This document shows, in pieces, positions 3,626 through 22,747 of a stretch of 31,035 bases of DNA (its first letter is position 1; each line of letters starts with the position of its first letter). Position numbers and translations under genes: made by a program. The stretch is from a virus. The notes beneath the pieces were generated by a model. That model was not told the DNA's origin, made no database searches, and saw only the letters and a program-made list of their open reading frames with translations. The stretch lies in IMG/VR virus record IMGVR_UViG_3300030389_002524, positions 1 through 31,035 of that record; one strand, written 5' to 3'.

Positions 3626-3639
3626 ATTTTTAAATTTTT

Positions 3640-3673: not shown

Positions 3674-3685
3674 AATTAAACACTA

Positions 3686-4582: not shown

Positions 4583-4611
4583 ATCTTTTTATCTTTTTTA
4601 TTTAGTTAATA

Positions 4612-5028: not shown

Positions 5029-5042
5029 AATTATTTTAATTT

Positions 5043-5618: not shown

Positions 5619-5662
5619 ACTTAATTAACAATAAGTATAAATTAATTTGCATTTAAGAAATT

Positions 5663-5836: not shown

Positions 5837-5838
5837 TA

Positions 5839-7419: not shown

Positions 7420-7450
7420 AATTATATAACATTTTTTTAAAAATTATTTG

Positions 7451-9388
7451 CTAACCTAAACTACTTTCTTGTATTATATTTCTTTCTAATCCTTGTGCTG
7501 TCGTTACATCACCTGCAACTACAAATGCTTTTACAGGTTTTTGTTGTTGTGCTGATATTGTTTGTGCTAATTGATTTTCGGGTGCTGCACCTACAATATT
7601 AAAACTTGGTGCAGAAGTTTGTATGCTTGGTGCATCTATACCAACAGAGCCACCACCACCACTTGCACCTGCACTAGCTGCTACTGATTTTGTTTTACCG
7701 ATTGCTGATTTTACTGCTGCAATAATTCCTATTGCTTGTGCTGCATATGCAATTATTAATGGTATGTTTTGTGGAAAACCAACCTTTGCTGTTTCTGCTG
7801 CACCTGTTGCTACTGCACTACCTGCTTTTGCGCCCTCGACAGTTGCTTCAGTAGATGCTTGTTGTGCTTTTATTAATGTCTTTTTTACTTCCATTATATT
7901 TTCTTTAGCTGCTAGTATTGTTTTTGCAACTAAAAGGGCTTTACCTAGTCTACTTTCTTCCCCTGCTAATCTTATTGCTGTATTAAAAGTTTTTTCTCTA
8001 ATTGCTATTTTCTGCTCTTCAATAGCTTTTATTTTATCAGCTCTACTTTGTTCATCTTCGATAATTGCTTGTGATATTTGCGCATTAAAAAATTTAATTG
8101 CTTCTGCTTTTTGTTCATCTGTTGCTTTTAAATCTTCTAATTCTTTTAAACCTCTTTCTTTTTGTCTTATTGCTCTTTGTTCTGCTGATAGATCTTCTGC
8201 ATCTTCATTTAATTTTCTAAATTTGTCTCTAATATTTTTTATTGCTTCTTGTCTTTTTGACTCATCTGCTATTGCCTTTGCAATATTATCAGCAATTTCT
8301 TTATTGGCTTTATCTTGTGCTTTTTTATCATCTTCTTCGATTTTATTTAAAAAACCTGCTCGTCTATTTCTAAGTTGTCTAAGTTTCTGCTCTGTCTCTT
8401 TTATAGCATTATCGCCTTCTTCATCTACGCCTGTAAAAATAGCACCTGCTATACTTGCACCAGCACCACCTACTTTATCTGCTAAACCAAAATCTTTACC
8501 AAAAAATTCTCCTACTTTATCCAACCCTTCTGCAAGTTTTTCAATAGGTTTCAAAACAAAATTTAAAATACCTGTTAATATTTTTTTATTTCTTTCTGCT
8601 GTTTTTATTTGCTCATTTCTTATTGTTTTTTGTGCTGTGAGTTGTGCTTCTAGTGCAGCGATTGTTTCTTCTGTTTGTTTAATTTTTAAGTTTGTTATTT
8701 CTCTTTCTGTTTTACCTTGTCTTTTTAAAGTTTCTTCTGTCTCTGTTAATGTTTTAAATTGTTCTTCTGCAGCGGTTGCTGATTTTGTTGCTTCTTCTGC
8801 AGCTTTTTTCTGTTCTTCATTTACACCTGTTAATGACTCTTTTATTTTATCAAAGTTTGCTACCAAAGTACCAACCAAAACTACCAATGCGCCTATACCT
8901 GTAGAAATTAAAACCTTTTGAAAAAGCGATAAACTTGCTGTTGCTACTTTTATACCACGACCAAGTGATAAGAATAATTTACCAAACGATTGAAATTGTA
9001 ATGACAAACCACCTGTAGCTTTACTAAGTCCTGTAGTTATGTCTCTGTTCTTTAATAAACTTTCATTAAATTGTGCTGCTTGTATTGTTCCTGCTTTTCT
9101 TGTTTTTGTATTTTGATTTAAAACATTCTTTAATTGTTTTTGTTTTACAATCAATTCTTTAAGTGCTGCTGCTTCAACTGTTTGTTGTGACTTTGCTGTA
9201 TCAATACCAGCTTGTCTTGCTTGTCTTTGTGTAAAACTTAGATCTTTTAAACTTGCTTCTGCTTCTTTTATTTGGCGATTATTACGAGCCAAAAATTCTT
9301 CTTGCAATTGTATTGTCTCAGTTAAATCGTTAAATTCTTTTTGAGCTTTTTGCGTATTAACATCTACATTTATGAATTGTGTTGCCAT
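7451..9388 (-). CDS. Tail tape measure protein
   Basis: The 645-residue protein has a long N-terminal coiled coil (residues 1-110, Gln/Glu/Lys-rich), a hydrophobic helix near residue 160 (VLISTGIGALVVLVGTLVA), further coiled coil from about 185 to 480, and an Ala/Gly-rich region with GASGGGGSVG near residue 575. This is the pattern of siphovirus tape measures, which set tail length and are ejected with DNA. At about 0.15 nm per residue of extended helix it would give a tail near 100 nm, by the usual rule of thumb. No lysozyme or peptidase domain is seen. It follows the large tail genes and precedes the head genes, so tail and head cassettes are inverted relative to lambda. Confidence 0.85.
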   Translation of the reverse strand: MATQFINVDVNTQKAQKEFNDLTETIQLQEEFLARNNRQIKEAEASLKDLSFTQRQARQAGIDTAKSQQTVEAAALKELIVKQKQLKNVLNQNTKTRKAGTIQAAQFNESLLKNRDITTGLSKATGGLSLQFQSFGKLFLSLGRGIKVATASLSLFQKVLISTGIGALVVLVGTLVANFDKIKESLTGVNEEQKKAAEEATKSATAAEEQFKTLTETEETLKRQGKTEREITNLKIKQTEETIAALEAQLTAQKTIRNEQIKTAERNKKILTGILNFVLKPIEKLAEGLDKVGEFFGKDFGLADKVGGAGASIAGAIFTGVDEEGDNAIKETEQKLRQLRNRRAGFLNKIEEDDKKAQDKANKEIADNIAKAIADESKRQEAIKNIRDKFRKLNEDAEDLSAEQRAIRQKERGLKELEDLKATDEQKAEAIKFFNAQISQAIIEDEQSRADKIKAIEEQKIAIREKTFNTAIRLAGEESRLGKALLVAKTILAAKENIMEVKKTLIKAQQASTEATVEGAKAGSAVATGAAETAKVGFPQNIPLIIAYAAQAIGIIAAVKSAIGKTKSVAASAGASGGGGSVGIDAPSIQTSAPSFNIVGAAPENQLAQTISAQQQKPVKAFVVAGDVTTAQGLERNIIQESSLG

Positions 9389-9519
9389 TTAATTTCTTTT
9401 TTTAATAATTTGTAACCATCAACCAAATTCTCAGGTAACTTGTATTTGCCTTGTGCAATTCTAATATTCTCAGTTTCACCATTTGCAAACTCTAATAGAT
9501 CTAAAATATTTACTATCAT
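9370..9519 (-). CDS. Small protein upstream of tape measure, 49 aa
   Basis: ATG 9519 overlaps the TGA of the 862-aa tail gene (ATGA), and the ORF overlaps the first 19 bases of the tape measure gene. The peptide begins MIVNILDLLEFANGETENIR and ends in a Lys-rich helix. Coupled overlaps on both sides indicate a translated gene. Its function is unknown. It is too small to be the frameshifted chaperone, which lies at 14256-14995. Confidence 0.55.
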   Translation of the reverse strand: MIVNILDLLEFANGETENIRIAQGKYKLPENLVDGYKLLKKEIKWQHNS

Positions 9520-12104
9520 ACTTTATTTAATAATTCTAAAGTGCTCTCGCCTGTTTGTAGATTTGTTGTAATTTTATTAATTATAAACTCCTCATTAGAT
9601 ATAACAATTGTATCAGACAATTTATAATTTAAAAGGAAACTTTGTGGCAATAATGCTTTAACTTTAACTAATCTTCTATTGTAACTAAATATATCACTTA
9701 TATACTCTCTGTAAAATGATTTAAATAATGTATTATCATCTATTTGACCTGTAACAAAAGGATTTATTTCTCTACTAAAATTTAATGTTTGACTATCAAC
9801 AGAGGTCGTATAAGTTATAGTTATATTGCCAGGGTCATCTACATTACTTGTTATTACAACACTATTTTTTATTACAGGGTTTATTGTTGTGTTAGCACCA
9901 TTTGCAACTGTAACAGTTTGTGTTGCATTATTACCATCTAAATAACTAAATGTAATGCTATTTGGCTCACCTAAAACTGCTAAAAATACACTTGCTGTAC
10001 CCTCTTGAAAATTTGTACCTCTATTTATTGTACTTATACTTGCTGGTGTTCCTATACCTCCACCATTAAACATTTGTATTGGCGTGCTACTTACACTTGT
10101 ATTTTTCTTAATAAATAATAATGGTTTGCCAATAGTTGGACTTTGGTTGTCATCTACAAAGTATCCAAAACCAATATTAGTATCTGCACCTCCATTAACA
10201 TTTTTCAGTCTTTCAAATAACATCTTTTCGTATGGTGTTTTAATTATATAATCTTGACCCCTGTTTAATCTTGGGTCACGACCACTATTACTTGCATCAC
10301 TTGCTTTTACTGCCCCATATTCTCTTGAATTTAATTTATTATAATAAAATGCAGCAAATGTTTTTGGCTCTTCAAACGTAAATTCTATATCATTAAATGG
10401 TACACTAAAGTTACTCTCGCTTTCATCTATAATTACAAATTCTGTTATATCTCTACTTGTACCACTTGCATAAAAGTTATCTAATGTTTGTACTTTTATT
10501 TGACTGAATGTACTACTTGTAACATCATTATCTACAAATGCTGTTAAGTTAAATGTTTTAAAAAGACCTGTTAAAAAATTTAATATTTTCATATCAGGTA
10601 CTTGATCAGCTACATAAATTGTATCTACAACAGAACTCGGACCAACACTACCTGCATTTATTGTTCGTGTATTTTCAAAAGGGTCTTCACCTAATCTAAG
10701 TAATGTTTTTTTAAATTGTAGAGCATAAGTTAAATTTAAACTTGTTTCTGTTGTTTCTATGACGAACTCTACATTATGACCATCAACTGTATTAAATACA
10801 TCAGTTTCAAAATCAAATTCTAATATTGTGCTTGTTGTACCTGAAGTGTGCGCAAGTTCTGCAATAACTTCATTTGTACCAGCTTTTCTGAATCGTACTG
10901 TAAATTGTTTTGTATTTACTGATGGGGTTACCGTCCATTTTATATTATAGCTTTCTTTATCTGAGGTACCATTTAATATACCTGTTTGAAACCTAAATAT
11001 ACCACCATCAAATACAGGCATAAAACCTGTAAAACTATTTGGCTCTGCACCTGTCGTAACATTATCAAAAAAAGTTAATACATCTCCTGTAAAACTTTGT
11101 ATCGTATCAACAACAATTAAATTTGTATTGGTTTCGTTACTTGGTGTAACTCCGATCTCGCCCTTATTTCTGTGCAACCACATATATATGTTGGCAAAAA
11201 ATCCTGTTGTTTTAAAAAAGTCATCTGTAAAGTTTAACCCGATCTCATTATCTTGTTCTATAACTTTAATTATATCGATAATTCTTAATGCTGGTTTTAA
11301 ATCTGTAAACTGAAAACCTTTTGTTGTTCCTAATCTTTGATTTACACCCTCACCACCACTATCAGCTTGGCTTCCACTTGCATATAAGTTTCTTGTTGTA
11401 TCACTTCTTGCTTGACTAGTTAATACACCCCCTGCTGTACTATCATATATGAATCTTTGTGTGTGTGATATTAAAGGGTATATAATGTGAGGTACTGATA
11501 CAGTTTGACCATTTAAAACAGATACAAAACTTTCTAAACCTTGTTTAACTCTTGTAACATTATAATCGTGATTAAATTGTGAAAAATCTAAGCTACTTAG
11601 TTTTCTGTCTTTTACACGATCTTTTAATTGTATAGTTTGACCATAAAATGTGATATTGTAACTATATGGTACATTGTTTTTTAATTTAACACCATTCATA
11701 ACAATGTAACCTGCTCTAAATGGCTTATAGTTTAATTCAAGTATTGCATCTAATTTAGAGTTTGCATCAAATATTCCATTTGGAATTGCATCACTTATAA
11801 GATCTCTACGATAGTAATGTTTAAATAGTTTATTATTTACATCACTTGCTGGTAAATTAAATGTTTTACTAAAATCTGTGAATACCTTTTCAATGTCTCT
11901 AATATCTTGTATTGTTTGTGTTAGTGTTATTTGTTCGTCTTCGAATAAATCTAAATGCTGAAAATTAATATCAGTAATTAAATTAATTTCGTTCCATTTC
12001 CTAAATGTATTTTCCCACAATGTTTCTGTTAAGTTCCAAATATCTGGGTTTGGTTGTGGACTATCTAATAATATACTTGGTATTGCTAACCCTACTTGGT
12101 TCAT
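9516..12104 (-). CDS. Large tail protein, probable baseplate/tail tip component, 862 aa
   Basis: The N-terminal 130 residues contain LFEDEQITLTQTIQDIRDI, FSKTFNLPAS and LFKHYYRRDLI, a segment I associate with tail tip proteins of flavobacterial siphoviruses. The rest is beta-rich with many Thr/Asn/Ser residues. A region near residues 240-330 (KDRVKDRKLSSLDF upstream, LKPALRIIDIIKVIEQDNEI) looks like the core of a hub-type protein. The protein ends in a beta-rich segment with ISNEEFIINKITTNLQTGES. It overlaps the upstream tail gene by one base (TAATG coupling). It is likely part of the tail tip joining tube and fibres. I could not assign a named family. Confidence 0.5.
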   Translation of the reverse strand: MNQVGLAIPSILLDSPQPNPDIWNLTETLWENTFRKWNEINLITDINFQHLDLFEDEQITLTQTIQDIRDIEKVFTDFSKTFNLPASDVNNKLFKHYYRRDLISDAIPNGIFDANSKLDAILELNYKPFRAGYIVMNGVKLKNNVPYSYNITFYGQTIQLKDRVKDRKLSSLDFSQFNHDYNVTRVKQGLESFVSVLNGQTVSVPHIIYPLISHTQRFIYDSTAGGVLTSQARSDTTRNLYASGSQADSGGEGVNQRLGTTKGFQFTDLKPALRIIDIIKVIEQDNEIGLNFTDDFFKTTGFFANIYMWLHRNKGEIGVTPSNETNTNLIVVDTIQSFTGDVLTFFDNVTTGAEPNSFTGFMPVFDGGIFRFQTGILNGTSDKESYNIKWTVTPSVNTKQFTVRFRKAGTNEVIAELAHTSGTTSTILEFDFETDVFNTVDGHNVEFVIETTETSLNLTYALQFKKTLLRLGEDPFENTRTINAGSVGPSSVVDTIYVADQVPDMKILNFLTGLFKTFNLTAFVDNDVTSSTFSQIKVQTLDNFYASGTSRDITEFVIIDESESNFSVPFNDIEFTFEEPKTFAAFYYNKLNSREYGAVKASDASNSGRDPRLNRGQDYIIKTPYEKMLFERLKNVNGGADTNIGFGYFVDDNQSPTIGKPLLFIKKNTSVSSTPIQMFNGGGIGTPASISTINRGTNFQEGTASVFLAVLGEPNSITFSYLDGNNATQTVTVANGANTTINPVIKNSVVITSNVDDPGNITITYTTSVDSQTLNFSREINPFVTGQIDDNTLFKSFYREYISDIFSYNRRLVKVKALLPQSFLLNYKLSDTIVISNEEFIINKITTNLQTGESTLELLNKV

Positions 12105-13219
12105 TATCGTATAGTATTTAGTTTGTCAAAAGCAAATTTAAAGTTTATTGTATAGTTTGAAAGTTTATCGTTTAAACTTGTTTTAAATGTAACTTGTTTA
12201 TTTTGTGGTATTACAGGTAATTGCTGATTATCTTTAAAAAGCCAACATCTTGGAGACATTAATAATTCTTCTATGACTTGATTGTAACTATCATTTACAT
12301 ATCCTGTGTTTAGTGTAATACTTTCTCTGCTTGTTACATTTCTTGTTTTATATTGATGATTATTAATTGAATATGTAGCACCTGTTGTTAATGTATTTGC
12401 TTTGTATTCTTCACGATTAACATCTATGCTTTCAATAGATTTTAAAAAGAAATTGACTCTTTGTAATGCGCCAAAACGATTAACAAATGTTATTGGCATA
12501 TTCGTAAATTTTTTACAAGTTTGCTCATCAACTTTAATTGTTTCTGTACTACCACCTGTCACAACATCTACACTTGTCAAAGATGCTGTTGTGCTTGTTG
12601 CATATTCTATTGCTGTATTAGTTGTATCTATTCCTGTACCAACTGTTACACTTGATACTGTTGTACTACCATTTTTGAAATTTACTGTTGTTGCACCTGA
12701 TAATGTATCTGCACCTGAGTTTACACTTAAGTTAGCAAGAACAGGTATTTTTAAGATCTCTTGACTTTCTCTAAATATAGTATCGTTTGACATTAATTTT
12801 GTAGTACTTCCTTTAAATGTATTTAGTGTTTGTGTTGTTGTACTATTGGTTTGTGTTTCTGTTGTAAAACCATCTTCGAAATATCCAACACCATCAAAAG
12901 CTAACATATTTGTTGTTATGGTTGGTAAATTACTTGTGCCATCATTTGGCGTTGCTATAGTTTTAACCCACAAATTAAGACCATTGTTACCAAAAGACCC
13001 ACTAAAACTATATTCAATATAATCTTTAATCAATTCACCAATTTCAAAAATGACAAAGTTATTATTAGCAACTTCGTTTTTTCTTAATTGATATGTTGTT
13101 GTTGGACTTGTTTGGTATGTACCACTATATATTGCAATATTTAAGGTACAATTCGCTAATGTTGCATTTGCAACTTTAATATATACAGGTGTATTTATAT
13201 TTATTTTAAAAATTGCCAT
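12104..13219 (-). CDS. Minor tail protein, 371 aa
   Basis: The protein is beta-rich throughout. The N-terminal region (MAIFKININTPVYIKVANAT, later FVIFEIGELIKDYIEYSF) is followed by a Thr/Ser/Val-rich stretch at about residues 165-235 that looks like an inserted Ig-like or spacer module. The C-terminal part holds FVNRFGALQRVNFFLKSIE, RESITLNTGYV and IEELLMSPRCWLF. The last part resembles conserved minor tail proteins of related phages that sit between tail terminator and hub genes. It is coupled to its neighbours by zero or one-base spacing. A distal-tail-like role is plausible but unproven. Confidence 0.5.
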   Translation of the reverse strand: MAIFKININTPVYIKVANATLANCTLNIAIYSGTYQTSPTTTYQLRKNEVANNNFVIFEIGELIKDYIEYSFSGSFGNNGLNLWVKTIATPNDGTSNLPTITTNMLAFDGVGYFEDGFTTETQTNSTTTQTLNTFKGSTTKLMSNDTIFRESQEILKIPVLANLSVNSGADTLSGATTVNFKNGSTTVSSVTVGTGIDTTNTAIEYATSTTASLTSVDVVTGGSTETIKVDEQTCKKFTNMPITFVNRFGALQRVNFFLKSIESIDVNREEYKANTLTTGATYSINNHQYKTRNVTSRESITLNTGYVNDSYNQVIEELLMSPRCWLFKDNQQLPVIPQNKQVTFKTSLNDKLSNYTINFKFAFDKLNTIR

Positions 13220-13789
13220 TTATTTATTTTTATCAAATATTAATTGTATTTCAGCATCAAAGTCATCACCTATTGCTTTTGCAATTTCTAGTGGTAAATT
13301 AGTATAGTATTTAAAAAAAGGTTTTGTAAAAAATAATGTTGGCTTTATACCTTTGCCATATATAGATCTCGCTATTAGAAAAGTTAAAGATTTTTTAAAA
13401 CCAACAGAATCTACACTTCTTTTTACGAATCTACCTTTTGTGTCTCTTATTCTTTTGTTAAACTTGCCACCTCTTCTAATTACCCATTGATCAAATGCTG
13501 ATGGTGGCGGCATTTTATCTGTGTATTTAAATTCTGGAAAATTATTACCATAATATTTTTTACCTAAACTTTCACCTTTTTTTGTACCTTTTACACCAAG
13601 ATCTTGGTATTGTCCGTACCTCTCCATAAAAAATGTAATTAAACTTCTTTTTTCTGTAATATTATCTTTAAAACCAATACTATTTAATAATTTACCACTC
13701 AGTGCATTTCTTTGTGCATTAAATTTAGCTTCATAAACAACCTTAGCTGCGAATGTTCTTAATACCTCTGTTAATTTATTTAAGACCAT
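13220..13789 (-). CDS. Neck / HK97 gp10-like morphogenesis protein (possible)
   Basis: The start chosen is ATG 13789, which overlaps the upstream TAA as TAATG. A longer reading begins at a TTG six bases earlier and is less likely. The 189-residue product is basic, with an N-terminal helix, then LLNSIGFKDNITEKRSLITF, FMERYGQYQDLGVKGTKKG and PPPSAFDQWVIRRGG, and it ends in a helical segment with FFKYYTNLPLEIAKAIGDDF. The 'Y....D.G.KG' and 'L.....W' arrangement resembles gp10-like head-tail joining and virion morphogenesis proteins. The position between the tail terminator-like gene and the large tail genes agrees. Assignment is by pattern only. Confidence 0.5.
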   Translation of the reverse strand: MVLNKLTEVLRTFAAKVVYEAKFNAQRNALSGKLLNSIGFKDNITEKRSLITFFMERYGQYQDLGVKGTKKGESLGKKYYGNNFPEFKYTDKMPPPSAFDQWVIRRGGKFNKRIRDTKGRFVKRSVDSVGFKKSLTFLIARSIYGKGIKPTLFFTKPFFKYYTNLPLEIAKAIGDDFDAEIQLIFDKNK

Positions 13790-14259
13790 TAGCAAATATT
13801 TATATCATTATCAATTAAAATATCCATAGTAGCAACCCAACCAGCAACTTCGTTTTCAAATCTGTCGTAAAATGGCTCACAACTAACAACACCATCTAGT
13901 TGGTATTTATTTGTATATAATGTACCACTTCTAAGTAATTCAATAAGTTTATTTGCAACTGCAAGTTGTGTGTTTAATATATCGTGTTCATTATTGTTAC
14001 CAAAAAATATATCTGTTGTTTCATCTTTACTCTGATCTACAATATCCATACATATAACACTTATGTTAAATCTTAAAATTTGCTCTTCCTGTGTTACTGT
14101 ATTTATAATAATGTGACTTAATGGATATATTGTTTGTTTCGATAAATCTACTTTTGTAATATCTCCTGTTGTTACAGTATTAACATTTTCGTCATTTAAC
14201 AAATTATCTCTTATTGTTGTTGTTATTAAATAAAAACCTCTTACGCCAATGTTACTCAT
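13789..14259 (-). CDS. Tail terminator-like protein
   Basis: The 156-residue protein has an N-terminal helix (GFYLITTTIRDNLLND), then VTTGDITKVDLSKQTIYPL and HIIINTVTQEEQILRFNISV, a helix near LNTQLAVANKLIELL, and closing strands (FYDRFENEVAGWVATMDI). This mixed alpha/beta order and length fit tail terminator / tail completion proteins, and I recognise the GDI..VDLSKQTI.PL.HI pattern from flavobacterial phages. Its ATG overlaps the TGA of the frameshifted tail chaperone product (ATGA), so translation of the two is probably coupled. It would cap the tail tube at the head end. Confidence 0.55.
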   Translation of the reverse strand: MSNIGVRGFYLITTTIRDNLLNDENVNTVTTGDITKVDLSKQTIYPLSHIIINTVTQEEQILRFNISVICMDIVDQSKDETTDIFFGNNNEHDILNTQLAVANKLIELLRSGTLYTNKYQLDGVVSCEPFYDRFENEVAGWVATMDILIDNDINIC

Positions 14260-14995
14260 TTTATTGTTTTATTAATTTGTTTTTGTTCTAGTTCGTTTTT
14301 TTCTTTTATAAATTCTAAAGCGTATAAACATTCGTGCATATTTAATTCAGTGATATCTTTGTACTTTGTAATATCTCCTTTAGCGAGTGCATAAATTGAC
14401 TGATACCAGCCCCACCGAGTTCCGAAGTTTGCAACTGCTGAAAAGTTTCCATCTCCTGTGGACTCAAATAGTCCAGAATATTCTTGCTCAAGTCGTTCCC
14501 TAAATTGTAAAAAAAAACAATGCTGCTAAAAACTACATCTAATGGCATTTTTTTCATTTCTGTAAATTCACCACCTTCATATTTTTTTATTGTATATCTG
14601 TCATTGTATTTATGTACCAAAGGTCTATACAAAACACCCATTGCTCTATGTATATTTTGCCAATCTTTAAAATAAGTGTCAAGATCTACATATTCGCCAA
14701 AAGTCATTTCGTCTAATGATGGTATAAAACCATACTTAATGTTGTCTAATTCAAAGTGTCTAATTAATATTTTGGTTTCTTGCTCAAATATATTGGTTAA
14801 AGTTTTTGATATTTTATTTATATGTGACATTCTAAACTCTATAATGTTTTTATAAGGTATATCACAAAAAATCTCAATCATTTTTGAGCCAATAACAAAC
14901 TGATCTTCTTCTTCTTCTTGCATTTTTAGAAACATCTGATATTGTTCTAAAGTAATATCATTTAAAGAATCAGGAACATTAATTTTTAACCTCAT
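14256..14995 (-). CDS. Tail assembly chaperone, -1 frameshift fusion (gpGT-like), about 246 aa
   Basis: Reading the zero frame to F162 and then stepping back one base at the T-run gives an 84-residue extension beginning LQFRERLEQEYSGLF and containing FGTRWGWYQSIYALAKGDIT and MHECLYALEFIKEKNELE. The Trp/Tyr-rich WGWYQSIYALAKGDI pattern is characteristic of the C-terminal half of phage tail chaperones, yet no start codon introduces it upstream. The -1 frame has a stop (TAG at 14528-14526) just 8 bases before the run, so it can only be entered there or later. The fusion ends with TGA at 14258-14256, overlapping the next ATG. The alternative, a sequencing indel in the run, would not explain why both frames stay open and protein-like. 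Confidence 0.72.
14342..14995 (-). CDS. Tail assembly chaperone, unshifted product (gpG-like)
   Basis: The 217-residue product begins MRLKINVPDSLNDITLEQYQ and is mostly helical, with an early acidic stretch (QEEEEDQFV). It is the short product of a gene with programmed -1 frameshifting. The zero frame continues 55 codons past the slippery run after F162 and ends IKISLN-like (KISLN) at 14342. Chaperones of this type coat the tape measure before tube polymerisation. It follows a terminator and a TTGTTATAT element, so it heads the tail unit. The shifted extension is listed separately. Role inferred from frameshift architecture, length and the position as first tail gene. Confidence 0.65.
   Translation of the reverse strand: MRLKINVPDSLNDITLEQYQMFLKMQEEEEDQFVIGSKMIEIFCDIPYKNIIEFRMSHINKISKTLTNIFEQETKILIRHFELDNIKYGFIPSLDEMTFGEYVDLDTYFKDWQNIHRAMGVLYRPLVHKYNDRYTIKKYEGGEFTEMKKMPLDVVFSSIVFFYNLGNDLSKNILDYLSPQEMETFQQLQTSELGGAGISQFMHSLKEILQSTKISLN
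14509..14517 (-). promoter_or_regulatory. Slippery site for -1 ribosomal frameshift
   Basis: Nine T residues on the minus strand follow a G. In the zero frame they read GTT TTT TTT TAC, so the canonical heptamer T TTT TTT occupies bases 14516-14510. Both tRNAs can re-pair with TTT after slipping back one base, after which the next codon is TTA. No strong downstream stem was established by eye. Confidence 0.7.
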
Positions 14996-14997
14996 AA

Positions 14998-15009
14998 CTA
15001 TATAACAAT
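14998..15009 (-). promoter_or_regulatory. TTGTTATAT promoter-like element before tail unit
   Basis: The minus strand reads ATTGTTATATAG two bases before ATG 14995, directly after the terminator at 15026-15055. It is the same core as before 3017, 16617, 16856 and 24737. The very short leader to the ATG would mean a nearly leaderless message if this is a -7 box, so the true start site needs mapping. Confidence 0.45.
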
Positions 15010-15025
15010 TTAATTAATATATTTT

Positions 15026-15055
15026 AAAAAAAAAAGGTAGCCATTTCTGACTACC
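15026..15055 (-). terminator. Strong Rho-independent terminator ending the small-gene cluster
   Basis: Minus-strand stem GGTAGTCA / TGGCTACC with a GAAA tetraloop (8 pairs, one G-U), followed immediately by ten T residues. It is the cleanest terminator in the window. It lies between the last small gene (stop 15112) and the tail chaperone (start 14995). Confidence 0.9.
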
Positions 15056-15111
15056 TATCAAACAACTAACATAAAAATAAAAACAATTATTTATAACCTA
15101 TGAAAAAAACC

Positions 15112-15234
15112 CTATTGAGTTAGCTGCTCGTGTTTTTTATCAAAAGGTTTACTTGGATATTCTTTACTTAGAATAAATTTAAAGTATTCCTTTTTACTAA
15201 CAAATTCTTTTTTTAATGGGTGCAAATATTTCAT
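15112..15234 (-). CDS. Small hypothetical protein, 40 aa
   Basis: ATG 15234 overlaps the TGA of the gene before it (ATGA). The peptide opens MKYLHPLKKEFVSKKEYFKF and is basic and Lys-rich with no membrane segment. It ends in TAG about 55 bases before the terminator, making it the last gene of its transcription unit. I do not recognise it. The tight coupling is the main support. Confidence 0.5.
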   Translation of the reverse strand: MKYLHPLKKEFVSKKEYFKFILSKEYPSKPFDKKHEQLTQ

Positions 15235-15374
15235 TTATCTTTATTTACAAGTATATTACCCTCTAGATCAAGTATTGTGTAATTATGTTTTAACAATAAC
15301 TCAATAGAGTTCTGTATTGCTTTAGCTTTTTGCTGCATTCTGTATGTTTCAAATATTTCGTTACTTATTGGCAT
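15231..15374 (-). CDS. Small hypothetical protein, 47 aa
   Basis: The start at 15374 overlaps the end of the 55-aa gene by 14 bases, and the TGA overlaps the next ATG. The product begins MPISNEIFETYRMQQKAKAI, a predicted helix, followed by SIELLLKHNYTILDLEGNIL, which resembles a helix and beta hairpin. No family is recognised. It belongs to the run of small, possibly host-directed genes between terminase and tail. Confidence 0.5.
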   Translation of the reverse strand: MPISNEIFETYRMQQKAKAIQNSIELLLKHNYTILDLEGNILVNKDK

Positions 15375-15528
15375 CTTTAATTATAACATTTTTATTAACA
15401 AATTTTTCATATTTTTTGATCATTTCTTGCTTTTCTTTGTTTGAATTTACAAATTTAGGTATTGATAACCAATACTTTGGCTCATTTTGTGCAAAAAATC
15501 TCTTTAATATCCAACCTAATACTCTCAT
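15361..15528 (-). CDS. Small hypothetical protein, 55 aa
   Basis: ATG 15528 overlaps the TGA of the upstream gene (ATGA). The product begins MRVLGWILKRFFAQNEPKYW and continues with WLSIPKFVNSNKEKQEMIKK. It is basic, with an amphipathic N-terminal helix (WILKRFF) that might associate with membranes. No family is recognised. Confidence 0.5.
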   Translation of the reverse strand: MRVLGWILKRFFAQNEPKYWLSIPKFVNSNKEKQEMIKKYEKFVNKNVIIKDANK

Positions 15529-15746
15529 TTTTTTGTAATCATAGGTTTTAATCTCATACCATCTTCTGCTATATTAATTTGTATATGTGTACCATTAAAG
15601 CAGCAAGGTATGTCATTATCTAAATCGTAACAAGTTTTATCATTTGGGTTCCAAACAAATATTCTTTCACTTGCCATTTCTAATAAATTTATAAGATCTT
15701 CGTTTGATAATCTATTATATATATTTAATAATTCTTTAGCGTCCAT
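15525..15746 (-). CDS. Hypothetical protein, 73 aa
   Basis: The start chosen is ATG 15746 (MDAKELLNIYNRLSNEDL), which overlaps the upstream stop by 11 bases, in keeping with spacing elsewhere. An in-frame extension to 15794 would overlap the upstream gene by 59 bases and is less likely. Residues 1-25 form a helix, then SERIFVWNPNDKTCYDLDND leads to a Cys-Cys pair and a beta-rich end. Function unknown. Confidence 0.55.
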   Translation of the reverse strand: MDAKELLNIYNRLSNEDLINLLEMASERIFVWNPNDKTCYDLDNDIPCCFNGTHIQINIAEDGMRLKPMITKK

Positions 15747-16086
15747 AATAAGGGTTGGTTTGCATTTTTGGTGTACCATCCCACAAATAAGCATTGCTGT
15801 ATGAATTTATATTTATGCTTGGGTCTTTAGAATCTCTGTAATATTTAATTCTACATAAAAATTGTTTAGATAAATGCTGTGATGGTAAATAAGGTACAAC
15901 AGCATCGTGATATGTATCACTTTTTTCATCTAACTTTCTATTTTCTAAATAAGCAAACATTGCACTTGATTTACCTATTTTCTTTGTTACAACATAATAA
16001 TCTATGTTTGTTTGATCGTAACCCCAAGATCGGTAGAATATATCTCCAACCTTTATATGTTCGTTATTGTATGTATATCTACGCAT
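15736..16086 (-). CDS. Hypothetical protein with KVGDIFYRSWGYDQTN motif, 116 aa
   Basis: I choose ATG 16086 (MRRYTYNNEHIKVGDIFYRS), an 8-base overlap with the upstream stop. The longer frame from 16176 begins inside the preceding gene. The segment VGDIFYRSWGYDQTNIDYYV is a pattern I have seen in small phage and plasmid proteins, followed in them by a basic, SH3-like beta fold. The C-terminal half contains HLSKQFLCRIKYY and NAYLWDGTPKMQTNPYYG. The pattern suggests a compact protein or nucleic acid binding domain, but the function is unknown. Confidence 0.6.
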   Translation of the reverse strand: MRRYTYNNEHIKVGDIFYRSWGYDQTNIDYYVVTKKIGKSSAMFAYLENRKLDEKSDTYHDAVVPYLPSQHLSKQFLCRIKYYRDSKDPSININSYSNAYLWDGTPKMQTNPYYGR

Positions 16087-16354
16087 AAGGTAATCTTGTA
16101 TTAAGCATTGCTGTGATCTTATCTTCGTGTGAACCAATGTATTTACCACATATTGGTGTACATTCTGTTGTAACAATAATACCTTTTTTGTATTTCTTGT
16201 TTTTTAATATTGTATCTTTTTCTAATACAACATTTTTTCTACCTGTATAACCCAAAACTTCTCTGTCAGGTTTATCAGTTCTAATTCTACCAATAAGTTT
16301 ACCTCTAAAATAGTAATCTATTGTGTAGCCAAGTATTTCAAATGTATTTCCCAT
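16079..16354 (-). CDS. Hypothetical protein, 91 aa
   Basis: The protein begins MGNTFEILGYTIDYYFRGKL and looks beta-rich, with RIRTDKPDREVLGYTGRKNV and KKGIIVTTECTPICGKYIGS. Two nearby cysteines (CTPIC) might bind a metal. It starts on the last base of the preceding gene's stop and overlaps the next gene by 8 bases. No family is recognised. Confidence 0.55.
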   Translation of the reverse strand: MGNTFEILGYTIDYYFRGKLIGRIRTDKPDREVLGYTGRKNVVLEKDTILKNKKYKKGIIVTTECTPICGKYIGSHEDKITAMLNTRLPYA

Positions 16355-16617
16355 TATATTACGGATATTAAATAAGATCTATCGCATTCTGTTAGATATT
16401 TACTATCAAATCTATTTTTATATTCTTCTTTTAAATCTTCTTCTGTAATATCTAAATAAGAATCTTTTAATAAACCAAATGTATATTTATCTACACTTAA
16501 ATCGGTAACACATCTTGTATCAGGTACAGGGTGTTTGCTTTCAGTTATATATTCAACTGTTTTTGTTTTGGTAGGGTGTGAACCCCATTCGGTAACTCTT
16601 TTAATAATTTTTGTCAT
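16354..16617 (-). CDS. Hypothetical protein, 87 aa, first gene of small-gene unit
   Basis: The product begins MTKIIKRVTEWGSHPTKTKT, with a C-terminal half of charged helices (LDITEEDLKEEYKNRF). It follows a terminator, a TTGTTATAT element and the leader AAATAAACATAA, so it is probably the first gene transcribed in the cluster that ends at 15055. Function unknown. Confidence 0.6.
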   Translation of the reverse strand: MTKIIKRVTEWGSHPTKTKTVEYITESKHPVPDTRCVTDLSVDKYTFGLLKDSYLDITEEDLKEEYKNRFDSKYLTECDRSYLISVI

Positions 16618-16635
16618 TTTTATGTTTATTTGTAT

Positions 16636-16646
16636 CTAATATAACA
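16636..16646 (-). promoter_or_regulatory. TTGTTATATTAG promoter-like element with AAATAAACATAA leader
   Basis: The minus strand carries TTGTTATATTAG, then ATAC and AAATAAACATAA before ATG 16617. The same leader follows the elements at 24754 and 21545. The box TATATTAG differs from the flavobacterial TAnnTTTG by one base. The T-run of the terminator at 16663-16696 lies about 19 bases upstream. Confidence 0.55.
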
Positions 16647-16662
16647 ATAATTTGTCAGAACT

Positions 16663-16696
16663 AAAAAAAACAGGGTTACTATTTTTCGCCCTGTTT
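16663..16696 (-). terminator. Rho-independent terminator after the 50-aa gene
   Basis: Minus-strand stem AAACAGGG / CCCTGTTT (8 pairs) with a 13-base loop, followed by eight T residues. It lies 8 bases past the stop of the 50-aa gene and before the promoter-like element of the small-gene unit. It likely ends the terminase transcript. Confidence 0.85.
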
Positions 16697-16703
16697 GTTT
16701 GAA

Positions 16704-16856
16704 TTATTTATTACTAAAAAACCCTGTTACAGTCCATTTACCAAGACCCAGCTTATATTCTTCGCTGCTTGGTTTGGGACCCCATACATTCTGTACTTGA
16801 AATTTAGGGTTATCTAGTAGGTTATCTAATTCGTCTTTAGTTATATTCTCATACAT
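16704..16856 (-). CDS. Small hypothetical protein downstream of terminase, 50 aa
   Basis: ATG 16856 follows a TTGTTATATTAG element by only 4 bases. The product opens MYENITKDELDNLLDNPKFQ and continues with VQNVWGPKPSSEEYKLGLGK before ending FFSNK. The Trp/Gly-rich middle and clean stop just before a terminator suggest a real, perhaps separately transcribed gene. I do not recognise it. Confidence 0.55.
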   Translation of the reverse strand: MYENITKDELDNLLDNPKFQVQNVWGPKPSSEEYKLGLGKWTVTGFFSNK

Positions 16857-16860
16857 ATTG

Positions 16861-16871
16861 CTAATATAACA
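16861..16871 (-). promoter_or_regulatory. TTGTTATATTAG promoter-like element after terminase
   Basis: The minus strand reads TTTGTTATATTAG between the terminase stop (16884) and ATG 16856. It is the only such copy not preceded by a terminator. CTAAT and ATTAG flank it as a short inverted repeat. It could serve the single 50-aa gene. Confidence 0.4.
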
Positions 16872-16883
16872 AATTAGTATTAA

Positions 16884-18044
16884 CTATCGTATTGCATATT
16901 TTCCAAAGTTTGGTTTCGATAATATTGAATAGGTTGCGTATCTGACTGCGTCTGTAATATGATTATGTTTATCCTCTGGTATGTTTGTTAATTTACCTGT
17001 ACGATCTTCTTTCCATTTATAATTACGAAATTCTTGTATTGCATTTTTACTATCTTTATGTATATACAGCTTATACCTTTTTAAAAGATCTATACCTGCA
17101 TTAACAGAATCTTTACCTTTTAAACTTGGACGAATATTCCAACCCATTCGTCTTAACTCATCAATAAGTCGTGGCTCAGCACTATCTAAATAAATCTGTT
17201 CTTTACTTATACCAACCTCTTTAAATTTATTATGTATATCTAATGTTGTCATCATTGTTCTATATAAATGCTCTTTTATATATAGATCATAACCATTTTT
17301 ATATACACTAACAAGTGTAGAAGGGTCATTTGTATAACCTGCATCTGCACCATACGAAATAAAAGTAGCTTCTTCAGGCAATACAGTATATTCATAATAA
17401 TTAAATATTACAGCTTTACTTGTACCTTTTTCTCCAAGACCATATATTTGCCAATACTGCTCATCTGTCAATCGTAACCTTTCAATCTCATCTACAAGTG
17501 TTTGTTCTAAAAATGGGTTGTCTAAATAGTTTGTTTTTAAAAAACTTGCATCGTCTCTTGGTATTATCTTGTCATATATCCAATGATACTCTTCGCTTGG
17601 GTTATAATCTAAAATAATTTTCTCGCTTGTTCTAAATAATAATTGTTGCCAATCTTCGTAATATAATTCGTTTGCTTCATTTATAAATAGCAAATCTCGT
17701 TTTCTTCCTCTAACCTTAACAGGCTGATCTAAACTTATAAATTCAATAAGATTACCAAACAAAGTATATTCAGAGCTTGATTTGTTGTGATAATCTTCAT
17801 TATATATATTATATTTTCTTAATATACTTAAAAAATCTCTTAAAACAGTTGCCCTAAGAGCAGGAAAAGTTTTACGACATATAGTAATAATCTTTTTACT
17901 ATTTCGTAGGCAATAATAAAAAATAATAAAAAGAAGAATATTGTAGGTTTTTCCACTTCTTGTGCCCCCTTGGTTAATTATAATTTTCTTGTCACTCTTT
18001 ACAAGGTGTTTAAAGACAACATTACTCTGTATCTTTATTTGCAT
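16884..18044 (-). CDS. terL: Terminase large subunit
   Basis: The 386-residue protein is the DNA packaging motor and nuclease. The ATPase half has Walker A GGTRSGKT (residues 26-33), a Walker B strand DLLFINEAN with catalytic E123, and a coupling motif LDYNPS (145-150). The RNase H-like nuclease half has D234 (GADAGYTNDPS), D287 (LDSAEPR) and D365 (HNHITDAVRYA), the three acidic positions expected. It resembles PBSX-type (Terminase_3) enzymes and is slightly short but complete. It overlaps the small subunit by 23 bases, so the pair is co-translated. The packaging mode (headful or cohesive end) cannot be read from the sequence. Confidence 0.95.
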   Translation of the reverse strand: MQIKIQSNVVFKHLVKSDKKIIINQGGTRSGKTYNILLFIIFYYCLRNSKKIITICRKTFPALRATVLRDFLSILRKYNIYNEDYHNKSSSEYTLFGNLIEFISLDQPVKVRGRKRDLLFINEANELYYEDWQQLLFRTSEKIILDYNPSEEYHWIYDKIIPRDDASFLKTNYLDNPFLEQTLVDEIERLRLTDEQYWQIYGLGEKGTSKAVIFNYYEYTVLPEEATFISYGADAGYTNDPSTLVSVYKNGYDLYIKEHLYRTMMTTLDIHNKFKEVGISKEQIYLDSAEPRLIDELRRMGWNIRPSLKGKDSVNAGIDLLKRYKLYIHKDSKNAIQEFRNYKWKEDRTGKLTNIPEDKHNHITDAVRYATYSILSKPNFGKYAIR

Positions 18045-18378
18045 CTATTATTTCAATTTTTACATCTTTTGGTATGCCATCTGCACCTGTTATTTCTTGC
18101 CTTTCGACATATCCTCTTTTTTTACCTCTTGTTTTTAATAAGAATATTGTTGCTGCTGTAGAGCCATCTTGTATTTGTTTATGTAATTGACTCTCTGCAA
18201 AATCTAATGCAACATTTTCAATATCATCTACTTTCTTTGCAAATTCTTTATCCTCGTTATAGTAATTATAAAAGGTTGTTCGCCCAATACCAACTTGTTT
18301 ACAAGCAGTTGTAACAACTCCCAAAGATTTCTCCAATGCTTCAATCAATCCTTTTTTTATGTGTTCACTTTTGTTCAC
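18022..18378 (-). CDS. terS: Terminase small subunit
   Basis: The 118-residue protein uses a GTG start at 18378 overlapping the previous stop. Residues 8-50 form a helix-turn-helix (ALEKSLGVVTTACKQVGIGR then TTFYNYYNEDKEF), like homeodomain-type small terminases of Gram-positive and Bacteroidota phages. The central helix (FAESQLHKQIQDGSTAATIF) would mediate oligomerisation, and the acidic C-terminus (KVEIIDANKDTE-type end) may contact the large subunit. It recognises viral DNA to start packaging. Its place directly before the large subunit supports the call. Confidence 0.85.
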   Translation of the reverse strand: MNKSEHIKKGLIEALEKSLGVVTTACKQVGIGRTTFYNYYNEDKEFAKKVDDIENVALDFAESQLHKQIQDGSTAATIFLLKTRGKKRGYVERQEITGADGIPKDVKIEIIDANKDTE

Positions 18379-19220
18379 TTCTTATAGTTTATATTTAATA
18401 TTTTTGGTGCTGCATTATTCCAGCTTACTCTGTGGTGTAATCTTCTAAAATTTAAACCCATCATACTTACTTTTACACAACTTGGTGAATATATTACACT
18501 ATAAAATGATTTCAGATAAGTGCCTTGATCTAAATAAATATCTGTCAGACCACCTTTATTTTGTTGTGTTGGTGTTTGTTCTAATCCTATTTCACATATT
18601 GTAAAAAAAAGATCTCCCACTTCCCCCTGCTTTACATATGTTGTAACATCTTCATTTACTCTGCCTAAAAATGTGAAAGGTCTTTCAGTACTACAAATAA
18701 AAAAATTCATTGCTTTTCTTGTAATACCATTTTTAAATACGTGGCAATTACTACCACCAATAAAATCACCCCCCTGTGCTATTGCTAATGTTTTTAAATT
18801 TGTGCTTCTAAAATATTTTAATAATATTTCTATTATATTACTAACATTTTTTATTAATGATTTTCTTGTAATATACTTACCTTTTTCATTTACCTTAAAT
18901 CTAAAACCTGTATAATCGTCATCTAATACTAAAAAATATTTATAATTAAGATCTTTTGCTATTTTAAAAACTTCGTTTCTAGCATAAACAACTACCTTTT
19001 CGTTGTCGTAATTATCGCCAATGTCAAAGTATTTTACTTTTTTTTTGTCAAAGACAACAACTTCGTCTTGAAAATTTTCTTTATACTTATATAATTCTTT
19101 ATCATCTGTGCTACAAACAATCTTTATATCTCCTGTATAGTTTTGTTTTTTAAGTGTGTAATATGTTTTTACATTGTCAGCACGACCATATGATAAAATA
19201 AAAGTGCAAAAATTATTCAT
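18375..19220 (-). CDS. TET-associated-type glycosyltransferase (TAGT family)
   Basis: The 281-residue protein has an N-terminal ILSYGRADNVKTYYTLKK, then GDIKIVCSTDDKELYKYKEN, VVVYARNEVFKIAKDL, and the acidic YFLVLDDDYTGF (D100-D102) expected to bind a metal-nucleotide sugar. The SYGR.DN...Y and LDDDY pattern matches, to my recognition, TET/JBP-associated glycosyltransferases of phages, which are thought to add sugars to oxidised bases in phage DNA. It is a putative DNA-modifying enzyme located between a ParB-domain gene and the terminase. No TET/JBP oxygenase is visible in the window, so its acceptor is unclear. A conventional GT-A enzyme modifying another target is the main alternative. Confidence 0.7.
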   Translation of the reverse strand: MNNFCTFILSYGRADNVKTYYTLKKQNYTGDIKIVCSTDDKELYKYKENFQDEVVVFDKKKVKYFDIGDNYDNEKVVVYARNEVFKIAKDLNYKYFLVLDDDYTGFRFKVNEKGKYITRKSLIKNVSNIIEILLKYFRSTNLKTLAIAQGGDFIGGSNCHVFKNGITRKAMNFFICSTERPFTFLGRVNEDVTTYVKQGEVGDLFFTICEIGLEQTPTQQNKGGLTDIYLDQGTYLKSFYSVIYSPSCVKVSMMGLNFRRLHHRVSWNNAAPKILNINYKK

Positions 19221-19932
19221 TATTCATATATTCGTTATATATCTCCTCTTGTAGTTTTACATAACCATTTCTAAGTGCTTTGTCAAAATCAATAATTACA
19301 AGTGCGCTTTGCTCCATTAAATTTTGTACATTTTTTTCAGAGTGTGCATAATAATCTGCAACTTTACTATAATCAAATACCAAATGTCTTTGTGCAGCTT
19401 TTATTAAAAACTCTTTTTCTTCTTTTGGTAATTTACTTGATTTTATATTATTTAATAATTCGTTAGTTTTTTCTTGATTTATAAGATCTTTAATTTTTGG
19501 TTTTTCTTCGCTTGGTGTGTAAATTGGTGCATCAATTTTTTTTGTATATATACTTTCATCATCTTCTAATCTTTGTGGTACATTTATAGCCCAATCATCA
19601 AGCTCATCTATTTCCCAATCATTCGCCAATAAATCCCAATCCCAATCGCCATATGCGACATTGTCTTTTACAATAAACTCTTTTTCTTGTTTCTTTGTTA
19701 AATTCTCTGCTCTTATAATATATATATCTTTAAAACCTGCTTCAAGACAAGCTCTGTATCTCATATTACCACCAATAATTATATTTTGTTCGTTAATTAC
19801 AATTGGTCGCAGTTTTAACATTTCTGGAAATTGCTTTACGCTTTTGACTAATTTTTTAAATTTACCATCAGTTATATTTCTTGGATTTTCTGCATTTAAA
19901 GATATAGCGTTAATTTTTACTTTTTCGATCAT
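19213..19932 (-). CDS. ParB-like nuclease domain protein
   Basis: Residues 1-100 form a ParB/sulfiredoxin-type domain: ISLNAENPRNITDGKFKKLV, RPIVINEQNIIIGGNMRYRA with the GGNxRxRA core, and AENLTKKQEKEFIVKDNVAY. The C-terminal part (about 140-239) is helical, with LPKEEKEFLIKAAQRHLVFD, SKVADYYAHSEKNVQNLMEQ and SALVIIDFDKALRNGYVKL. I recognise this second segment as a frequent companion of ParB domains in phages with DNA-modification genes. The enzyme might act as a nuclease or bind modified DNA. It overlaps both the upstream sigma-like gene and the downstream glycosyltransferase by a few bases, so the three are one unit. Confidence 0.72.
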   Translation of the reverse strand: MIEKVKINAISLNAENPRNITDGKFKKLVKSVKQFPEMLKLRPIVINEQNIIIGGNMRYRACLEAGFKDIYIIRAENLTKKQEKEFIVKDNVAYGDWDWDLLANDWEIDELDDWAINVPQRLEDDESIYTKKIDAPIYTPSEEKPKIKDLINQEKTNELLNNIKSSKLPKEEKEFLIKAAQRHLVFDYSKVADYYAHSEKNVQNLMEQSALVIIDFDKALRNGYVKLQEEIYNEYMNNE

Positions 19933-20495
19933 AAAGTATTTATTAATTTATTTTTTAATATTTCTTTAGCTTTTGTATAGCTATTATAAACTGAATAGTA
20001 ACCCTTGTTTTTTATTTTTGAATATTCAGTTACACTTAAATTGTTGGTGTCTATTTCTTCAAAAACTTTAAAATGCTGTTGATGAAAATATAGATTACTT
20101 TTTTTATTTTTTTCTTCATTAAGTATTTTTAAATACCTTTTGTAATATAAATCATAGTTAAAAATTTTTGGTGCCTGTAATTTTGTAACAGTTTTTGTTA
20201 AATATTTACCATCACGATTAACAATAATAATGTCTCCATTAATATCTATTTTTAAATATAGCTTTTCAATTTTTTTATATTTTCTAACATAATCGGTATA
20301 AATACCTTTTAACATTTTATATATATACCAATAGTTTGGTTTTCCATTATATAATATATCTTGACCCTTATAAATTTTTTGATACAATCTTAAATACATT
20401 TCACTAACAACATCTTTTGCAGTATTTTTACTTGCGCCAAAACTTCTAGTTATACCAAGCCATTTTTTATGATTTAAAAAAACTTCTTTTATCAT
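19929..20495 (-). CDS. Sigma factor-like protein A, 188 aa
   Basis: The N-terminal region (HKKWLGITRSFGASKN, then AKDVVSEMYLRLYQ) looks like sigma region 2 (helices with 'AEDlvQEMYlR' type), and GQDILYNGKPNYWYIY follows. The C-terminus (LSVTEYSKIKNKGYYSVYNS then KAKEILKNKL) resembles the helix-turn-helix of region 4. It is similar over its whole length to the protein at 22256-22747. Such proteins in Bacteroidota phages are probable alternative sigma factors or transcription regulators. The middle (YLKIDINGDIIIV) is a beta-containing insertion absent in the paralogue. It is coupled to its neighbours by 4-base overlaps. Confidence 0.6.
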   Translation of the reverse strand: MIKEVFLNHKKWLGITRSFGASKNTAKDVVSEMYLRLYQKIYKGQDILYNGKPNYWYIYKMLKGIYTDYVRKYKKIEKLYLKIDINGDIIIVNRDGKYLTKTVTKLQAPKIFNYDLYYKRYLKILNEEKNKKSNLYFHQQHFKVFEEIDTNNLSVTEYSKIKNKGYYSVYNSYTKAKEILKNKLINTL

Positions 20496-22165: not shown

Positions 22166-22269
22166 TTTTTTCGTCTTTCATCACACCCGCAATTAGGATA
22201 TATTTTTTTCCATATATACCTAATGCCTGTATATTTAGTAATGTAATAAACTAAGTCACCTAATTTCAT
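22144..22269 (-). CDS. Conserved small phage protein, 41 aa
   Basis: This short gene lies in the gap between the sigma-like gene B and the 68-aa gene, overlapping both (14 and 22 bases). The product opens MKLGDLVYYITKYTGIRYIW and ends with PNCGCDERRKKWNKIKL. The GDLVYYITKYTGI...NCGCD.RR..WN.I pattern is one I know from many Bacteroidota phages as a tiny conserved protein of unknown role. The near-perfect pattern makes it a real gene despite its length. Confidence 0.7.
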   Translation of the reverse strand: MKLGDLVYYITKYTGIRYIWKKIYPNCGCDERRKKWNKIKL

Positions 22270-22747
22270 TTTTTAATATATCTTTTACTTTGTTATAAGT
22301 TCTGTACAAACTATAATAACTGATTTTACTTTTCCTGCTCAACTCTTTGATACTCATACCGCCTTCAATAATTCTATATACTTTTGCATCATACCAAAAC
22401 ATATCATCTAATTTTTTATTTATTCTCTTATATGTTTTTTCTATGTCTTGATCTAAATTATTGCTTTTTTTAAGCTTATATAAATACTCATCTATATTAA
22501 TAACATTTATTTTTGCCTTTTTTAGTTGTAAATTAATTGTCATATGTCTTAAACATTGATATATGTACAAATAATTTATATCTCCTTTATAACTAATGTC
22601 TTTGCCTTGATCAATATACTTTATAACTCGAATGTACATTTCTTGTACAAGATCTTCTGCATAATCTTTAAGTCCAAAAGATTTTACAATATTAATCCAA
22701 TCGTTATGTTTGTTTGTTAACTTTTTTTTTAGATCAGAAGGGTGCAT
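22256..22747 (-). CDS. Sigma factor-like protein B, 163 aa
   Basis: I choose ATG 22747 (MHPSDLKKKLTNKHNDWINI), overlapping the upstream stop by 14 bases. A TTG twelve bases earlier would extend it slightly. The N-terminus (KSFGLKDYAEDLVQEMYIRV) looks like sigma region 2 and the C-terminus (IEGGMSIKELSRKSKISYYS, then YRTYNKVKDILKNEIR) like the helix-turn-helix of region 4. It is a paralogue of the protein at 19929-20495, sharing FG..K..A.D.V.EMY.R and GKDISYKGDINYLYIY. It follows the helicase and precedes the recombination genes, so it could control middle or late expression. Role inferred. Confidence 0.65.
   Translation of the reverse strand: MHPSDLKKKLTNKHNDWINIVKSFGLKDYAEDLVQEMYIRVIKYIDQGKDISYKGDINYLYIYQCLRHMTINLQLKKAKINVINIDEYLYKLKKSNNLDQDIEKTYKRINKKLDDMFWYDAKVYRIIEGGMSIKELSRKSKISYYSLYRTYNKVKDILKNEIR

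What the first reader, a model, noticed from the sequence alone, without database searches (positions are those of the whole stretch)
14256..14995. Programmed -1 frameshift in the tail assembly chaperone at a run of nine T residues
In the zero frame the gene ends at 14342, but the -1 frame is open from a stop at 14528 to a TGA at 14258-14256 and encodes an 84-residue, Trp/Tyr-rich segment (FGTRWGWYQSIYALAKGDIT) typical of the C-terminal half of phage tail chaperones. The frame has no start of its own before it. The heptamer T TTT TTT at 14516-14510 lies just inside the point where the -1 frame opens. The shifted product ends exactly on the ATGA of the next gene. This architecture is known for lambda G/GT and many siphoviruses. 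What is unusual is that 55 zero-frame codons overlap the extension, so a long stretch codes in two frames.
Basis: partly seen in the sequence, partly recalled or inferred. Interest (0 to 1): 0.65.

Follow-up and report, generated by a model that had tools for sequence, protein, structure and literature searches.

The report
Phage gene read in two frames
A tail-building gene in a large group of phages of Flavobacteriia and their kin makes two proteins by slipping at a run of at least nine Ts; the run length itself looks protected by evolution, which suggests that the RNA-copying enzyme slips rather than, or as well as, the ribosome.

Summary
It is not a sequencing error. All 291 relatives examined, including cultured Nonlabens phages P12024L/S, have the same -1 split at a run of at least nine T. 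None is fused in one frame and none has seven or eight T. Both frames are under selection: in 21 diverse relatives the overlap has no zero-frame stop, against 73 expected. A ribosomal heptamer T_TTT_TTT needs seven T. Here the run stays at nine or more while its codon phase and flanking residues changed at least 12 times on the tree. In-phase T_TTT_TTT occurs in 49 other genes of these phages, but runs of nine or more T are nearly absent (1 seen, 8.4 expected). No downstream RNA structure or Shine-Dalgarno-like signal is evident. This favours RNA-polymerase slippage (one extra U gives the -1 frame), about 0.58; ribosomal -1 slippage is the main rival. The tail-chaperone role is likely (about 0.75) from architecture and weak structural matches, not from family hits. 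New variant of a known kind.

The parts
14342..14995 (-). zero-frame gene (217 aa plus stop), presumably the abundant shorter product; PHROG 32199, function unknown; similar to Nonlabens phage P12024L gp40
   Evidence: AlphaFold mean pLDDT 80, residues 192-217 below 50
14509..14517 (-). run of nine T, the slip site; contains the in-phase heptamer T_TTT_TTT at 14516-14510
   Evidence: T>=9 in 291 of 291 relatives, in three codon phases
14256..14510 (-). -1-frame extension of 84 residues (LQFRERLEQ...WGWYQSIY...) plus TGA; helical C-terminal domain of the fusion protein
   Evidence: AlphaFold mean pLDDT 80, all helical
14345..14509 (-). 55 codons read in both frames (dual-coding overlap)
   Evidence: 0 zero-frame stops in 21 diverse relatives against 73 expected
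14256..14259 (-). ATGA overlap: stop of the extension and start of the next gene (14259-13789)
   Evidence: stop written ATGA in 79 of 142 unique relatives
15035..15056 (-). terminator-like stem (9 pairs) followed by T10, about 40 bases upstream of the gene start; probably ends the upstream transcript

Best explanation
The gene makes two proteins in a set ratio. Most transcripts give the 217-residue zero-frame protein. On a fraction of transcripts the RNA polymerase slips on the nine-T run and adds one U, so that ordinary translation continues in the -1 frame and gives a protein of about 246 residues: 162 shared residues, then the 84-residue helical WGWY domain. By analogy with lambda gpG/gpGT, the short form would coat the tape-measure protein and the rarer long form would recruit tail-tube subunits through its extension. 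The 55 shared-DNA codons code for both C-termini. Shown: the two frames, their conservation, selection on both, and conservation of a run of nine or more T whatever the phase. Inferred: that slippage happens, that polymerase rather than ribosome does it, and the chaperone role.
For: (1) The same -1 split and T>=9 in 291 of 291 relatives, including cultured P12024L/S. The search query begins after the run, so neither run length nor upstream frame was selected for. (2) Both frames selected: 0 zero-frame stops against 73 expected in lineage A, 0 against 41 in lineage B; the third frame is near its expectation (131/144 and 150/163), and after the zero-frame stop the zero phase is full of stops again (72, expected 62). 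Zero-frame identity is 0.43 against 0.30 expected. (3) For polymerase slippage: T9 occurs as GTT TTT TTT Txx, TTT TTT TTT Nxx and GGT TTT TTT TTG; at least 12 phase changes on the tree; no run under nine, where 13.2 of 115 would be expected if the two ends varied independently. (4) In 754 other genes of these contigs, runs of T>=9 are nearly absent (1, expected 8.4) and A>=9 are depleted (12, expected 51.6), while 49 genes carry an in-phase T_TTT_TTT (expected 86). (5) No structure downstream (mean z -0.1 and 0.0) and no Shine-Dalgarno-like element recognised upstream by eye. (6) Literature: slippage in bacteria at nine A or T (PMC5009743); mostly single-base insertions, rising exponentially with run length (PMC5574713); 15-55% in Shigella genes and about 20% in Citrobacter tssM (PMC4256274). 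(7) BFVD matches named tail assembly chaperone (prob 0.98 over 52 residues, and 0.89).
Against: Every run also holds the in-phase ribosomal heptamer, as any nine-T run must. P2-like tail genes use T6G or T7G and are explained by ribosomal slippage (PMC3931495). Most lineage A members have similar residues at the site ([VILF]FFY), so amino-acid constraint explains part of the run there. The avoidance of long A/T runs could partly reflect replication errors. No RNA data were available. PDB fold searches found nothing. The gene is not next to the tape measure gene (7451-9388).
Confidence: 0.58

Rival explanations
1. Programmed -1 ribosomal frameshifting at T_TTT_TTT with faithful transcription, as in lambda G/GT and P2 E/E'. 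The extra Ts come from hydrophobic residues or raise efficiency.
For: An in-phase heptamer is present in every relative. This is the established mechanism for tail chaperones, including T-run sites (PMC3931495), and low-level phage shifts need no stimulator (PMC5009743). The frame is always -1.
Against: Seven T would suffice, yet none of 291 has seven or eight, across three codon phases. In-phase heptamers are tolerated in 49 other genes, but runs of nine or more T are not. No stimulatory signal was found.
Confidence: 0.35
2. The extension is a separate protein made by re-initiation near the zero-frame stop or by internal initiation, as annotated for P12024L gp41.
For: In P12024L an ATG overlaps the zero-frame stop (TAATG), and gp41 is annotated as its own gene. 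In the window an ATG lies shortly after the TAA.
Against: The conserved part begins right after the run (LxFRxR), upstream of any start. 82 of 115 representatives have no ATG/GTG/TTG between the opening stop and the WGWY motif, and 109 have no ATG between the run and the motif.
Confidence: 0.04
3. Sequencing or assembly error in a homopolymer, or a decayed gene.
For: Homopolymers are error-prone.
Against: Identical architecture in 291 loci from many projects and in cultured isolates; no relative is fused; both frames are under selection.
Confidence: 0.01
4. The two-product gene is not a tail assembly chaperone but another structural or assembly protein (for example a head-tail completion factor). 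This concerns the role and can be combined with either decoding mechanism.
For: No family of known function matches. The gene lies after TerL and four genes away from the tape measure.
Against: A -1 two-product gene in the structural operon with a helical extension is the hallmark of tail chaperones. Of the named BFVD hits shown, two are tail assembly chaperones (prob 0.89 and 0.98); the only other with a functional name, a baseplate protein, has prob 0.08.
Confidence: 0.25

Closest known systems
Phage lambda gpG/gpGT and the conserved siphophage tail-chaperone frameshift (Xu, Hendrix and Duda 2004, cited through PMC5009743)
   Same: Two products from one gene, -1 transition towards the 3' end, C-terminal extension without a start of its own, tail-module setting.
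   Different: No family match by sequence; T9+ run instead of a short heptamer; 36-65 shared codons in most members; gene lies after TerL and not next to the tape measure; probable polymerase slippage.
Phage P2 E/E' and Smp131-like relatives (T6G / T7G sites; PMC3931495)
   Same: T-run slip site, -1 extension lacking its own ribosome binding site.
   Different: Run of six or seven T, overlap of 37 nt, myophage; here never under nine T and about 165 nt of dual coding.
Bacterial genes decoded by transcriptional slippage: Shigella mxiE, spa13, spa33, mxiA; Citrobacter tssM1 (PMC4256274, PMC5009743)
   Same: A/T homopolymer slip site; ratio of two length variants; no RNA structure needed.
   Different: Those are secretion-system genes; none of the papers found describes a phage tail gene of this kind.
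Nonlabens phages P12024L and P12024S gp40/gp41 (Inhavirus)
   Same: Direct relatives (31% identity), T9, same -1 frame and WGWY motif.
   Different: Annotated as two unrelated hypothetical genes; the overlap is only 24 codons.

Membership tests
Phage two-product tail assembly chaperones (G/GT type) | Extension in the -1 frame, without its own start, conserved in relatives | tested here: met
Phage two-product tail assembly chaperones (G/GT type) | Slippery heptamer X_XXY_YYZ in phase at the transition | tested here: met
   T_TTT_TTT in all relatives
Phage two-product tail assembly chaperones (G/GT type) | Gene lies between major tail protein and tape measure | tested here: not met
   It follows TerL and small genes; four genes separate it from the tape-measure match at 7451-9388. 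Same module, not adjacent; so it is described as working like a tail chaperone, not filed as a proven member.
Phage two-product tail assembly chaperones (G/GT type) | Sequence or fold match to a known tail chaperone | tested here: inconclusive
   No Pfam/PHROG family of known function; no PDB fold; BFVD hits named tail assembly chaperone at prob 0.89 and 0.98 but E 0.1 and 0.69
Phage two-product tail assembly chaperones (G/GT type) | Binds tape measure; long form binds tail tube protein; absent from virions | not testable with these tools
   needs biochemistry
Genes decoded by programmed transcriptional slippage | Run of about nine or more A or T kept irrespective of codon phase | tested here: met
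Genes decoded by programmed transcriptional slippage | Such runs avoided elsewhere in coding sequence of the same genomes | tested here: met
Genes decoded by programmed transcriptional slippage | mRNA population with extra or missing bases at the run | not testable with these tools
   needs RNA from infected cells
Programmed -1 ribosomal frameshifting with stimulators | Conserved downstream hairpin or pseudoknot, or upstream Shine-Dalgarno-like element | tested here: not met
   mean z -0.11 (60 nt) and 0.02 (90 nt) over 26 relatives; pseudoknots not modelled; upstream region only inspected by eye. Stimulators are not obligatory in phages.

The most novel reading that the evidence does not exclude
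A large group of phages of Flavobacteriia and relatives sets the ratio of its two tail-chaperone forms by RNA-polymerase slippage on a T run held at nine or ten bases. This would be a phage tail-assembly switch run at transcription, with 36-65 codons under selection in two frames.
Probability: 0.5. Interest if true: 0.72.

Novelty: new variant of a known kind. Interest (0 to 1): 0.6.

Why it matters
Tail-chaperone frameshifting is textbook ribosomal recoding. If this group does the same job by polymerase slippage, two unrelated decoding mechanisms have converged on one tail-assembly ratio, as is known for dnaX. The gene family is abundant in environmental viromes but is annotated as two hypothetical genes even in the cultured isolates, so the fusion protein is missed. 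P12024L/S and their host are cultured, which makes the question testable by sequencing RNA. The long dual-coding overlap, in hundreds of diverse sequences, is also a good natural data set for overlapping-gene evolution.

Tried and rejected
Sequencing error or pseudogene: rejected by relatives and by selection on both frames. Separate initiation of the extension: rejected as the main route, because conservation starts at the run and most relatives have no start codon. Stimulatory RNA structure: fold z-scores centred on zero; the hairpin at 14475-14459 is not shared by relatives. Family identification with Pfam and PHROGs, also with every member of the alignments, gave nothing of known function. 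PDB fold searches gave nothing. Modelling the fusion with four-letter words does not work for a -1 shift, so the two parts were folded apart. Flavobacterium phage 6H gp10, a weak fold match (E 3e-4; taken to be that protein from its length of 191 aa), was checked: it ends at TGT TTT TTC (T6) and its -1 frame meets a TAG at once, so it is not the same device. Conservation of GVGINQF in the zero frame is partly an echo of the invariant WGWYQS of the -1 frame; the simulations allow for this by keeping the -1 protein fixed.

Full report
OBSERVATION. Every coordinate in the finding holds. The minus-strand gene 14995-14342 carries nine T at 14517-14509. The -1 frame is open from 14525 to TGA 14258-14256, overlapping the next gene as ATGA. 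The 84 residues after the run have no start codon before the WGWY motif, and 55 zero-frame codons lie in the overlap.

RELATIVES. A search of IMG/VR with the extension alone (the query begins after the run, so run length and upstream frame were not selected for) gave at least 594 related stretches. Further queries gave more divergent sets. In the species genomes there are few: one Flavobacteriaceae MAG and, in a sample of 397 genomes of its family, that genome plus two more. The cultured relatives found are Nonlabens phages P12024L and P12024S, annotated as gp40 and gp41, two hypothetical proteins. In P12024L the record itself shows T9, a zero-frame protein ending 24 codons later, and the -1 frame encoding LSFRERLRDLYPELY...KWGWYHT.

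RUN LENGTH. Lineage A (209 unique): T9 172, T10 35, T12 2. Lineage B (74 unique): T9 73, T10 1; 14 loci missed by the motif scan also have T9. No relative has seven or eight T and none is fused in one frame. In lineage B the run sits in three codon phases with different residues: GTT TTT TTT TCG/TAC, TTT TTT TTT GTG/GCG/CTG/ATC, GGT TTT TTT TTG. On a maximum-likelihood tree of the region upstream of the run (115 representatives, short search, SH-aLRT support only) the phase changed at least 12 times. If the T content of the two ends were independent, 13.2 of 115 runs would be shorter than nine (minimum of 2000 shuffles, 8); none is. This count does not correct for relatedness, but the tree count shows repeated changes. 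Where codon four is Phe in lineage A it is TTC in 13 of 15 unique sequences although TTT is 79% of Phe codons, as if runs beyond ten were avoided (related sequences, so suggestive only).

REST OF THE CODING SEQUENCE. In 754 non-redundant other genes (475 kb) of these contigs: T7 70 (expected 106.5 from synonymous shuffles), T8 6 (19.4), T>=9 1 (8.4); A7 151 (205), A8 67 (87), A>=9 12 (51.6). 49 genes have an in-phase T_TTT_TTT (86 expected). In a smaller set, depletion did not depend clearly on phase. In the window the only coding T>=9 is this one; the other two (15035-15026, 3058-3050) are intergenic.

DUAL CODING. Among 21 lineage A representatives under 70% identical, redrawing synonymous codons of the -1 protein puts 73 stops in the zero frame across the overlap (minimum 54 in 400 trials); observed 0. 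The third frame has 131 against 144 expected. Beyond the zero-frame stop the zero phase has 72 against 62. Lineage B: 0 against 41 (minimum 27), third frame 150 against 163. The converse also holds: given the zero-frame protein, the -1 frame would be open with probability mostly under 0.03. Zero-frame identity in the overlap is 0.43 against 0.30 expected. Synonymous codons are conserved in the overlap more than in the single-coded part upstream. Both C-termini are therefore under selection. The overlap is 52-65 codons in most of lineage A, 15-24 in the P12024 group and about 36-53 in most of lineage B.

MECHANISM. No RNA structure follows the run (mean z -0.11 and 0.02), and no upstream Shine-Dalgarno-like element was recognised by eye. 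The ribosomal heptamer needs seven T; P2-like phages use T6G or T7G (PMC3931495). Bacterial polymerase slippage is reported at nine A or T (PMC5009743). Insertions at runs are mostly single bases and rise exponentially with run length (PMC5574713). One inserted U gives exactly the -1 frame. Efficiencies of 15-55% are reported for bacterial genes (PMC4256274). A run kept at nine or more irrespective of phase, and avoided elsewhere while seven-T heptamers are tolerated, is what polymerase slippage predicts. I put it at about 0.58 against 0.35 for ribosomal slippage; both may act. The junction peptide is the same either way. The other slippage frame (one T lost) closes after a median of two codons.

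ROLE. No curated family of known function matches either part (PHROG 32199 and 38404 are of unknown function). Models are moderately confident (pLDDT about 80) and match no PDB fold. BFVD returns the P12024S protein, many uncharacterised phage proteins, and two named tail assembly chaperones at modest scores. The gene lies in the structural region between TerL (16884-18044) and the tail genes; the tape measure (7451-9388) is separated from it by four genes. Tail chaperone is the best reading, by analogy, at about 0.75.

NOVELTY. The two-product tail-chaperone architecture is known. New here: a widespread unannotated family, a long selected dual-coding overlap, and run-length conservation that points to transcriptional slippage in a phage tail gene. 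A full-text search found no paper describing that, within an open-access library only.

Noticed in passing
L260 23946-24640 (Nonlabens phage P12024L gp40, gp41): Deposited annotation splits the two-product gene into two hypothetical proteins; gp41 is called from an ATG inside the extension.
   Followed up: yes
window 898-18044: Unusual gene order on the minus strand: TerL, chaperone-like gene, tail genes and tape measure first, then protease, scaffold-like gene, capsid-like gene and portal.
   Followed up: partly
window 18375-19220: TET-associated glycosyltransferase (Pfam TAGT, E 9e-30) next to a ParB_N-domain gene; suggests modified phage DNA. P12024L also has an oxygenase and a glucosyltransferase annotated side by side.
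   Followed up: no
window 19929-20495 and 22256-22759: Two similar-looking small proteins; the second has a weak Sigma70_r2 match. Possible phage sigma-like factors, relevant to which polymerase form transcribes the late genes.
   Followed up: no
L341 10047-10927 (Flavobacterium phage 6H gp10, minus strand): The gene is followed by an unannotated start-less open frame in the -1 register, blocked by a TAG just after a T6; how it would be reached is unclear.
   Followed up: partly
window 3058-3050: A second nine-T run in the gap between 3101 and 3017 on the minus strand, probably part of a terminator.
   Followed up: no
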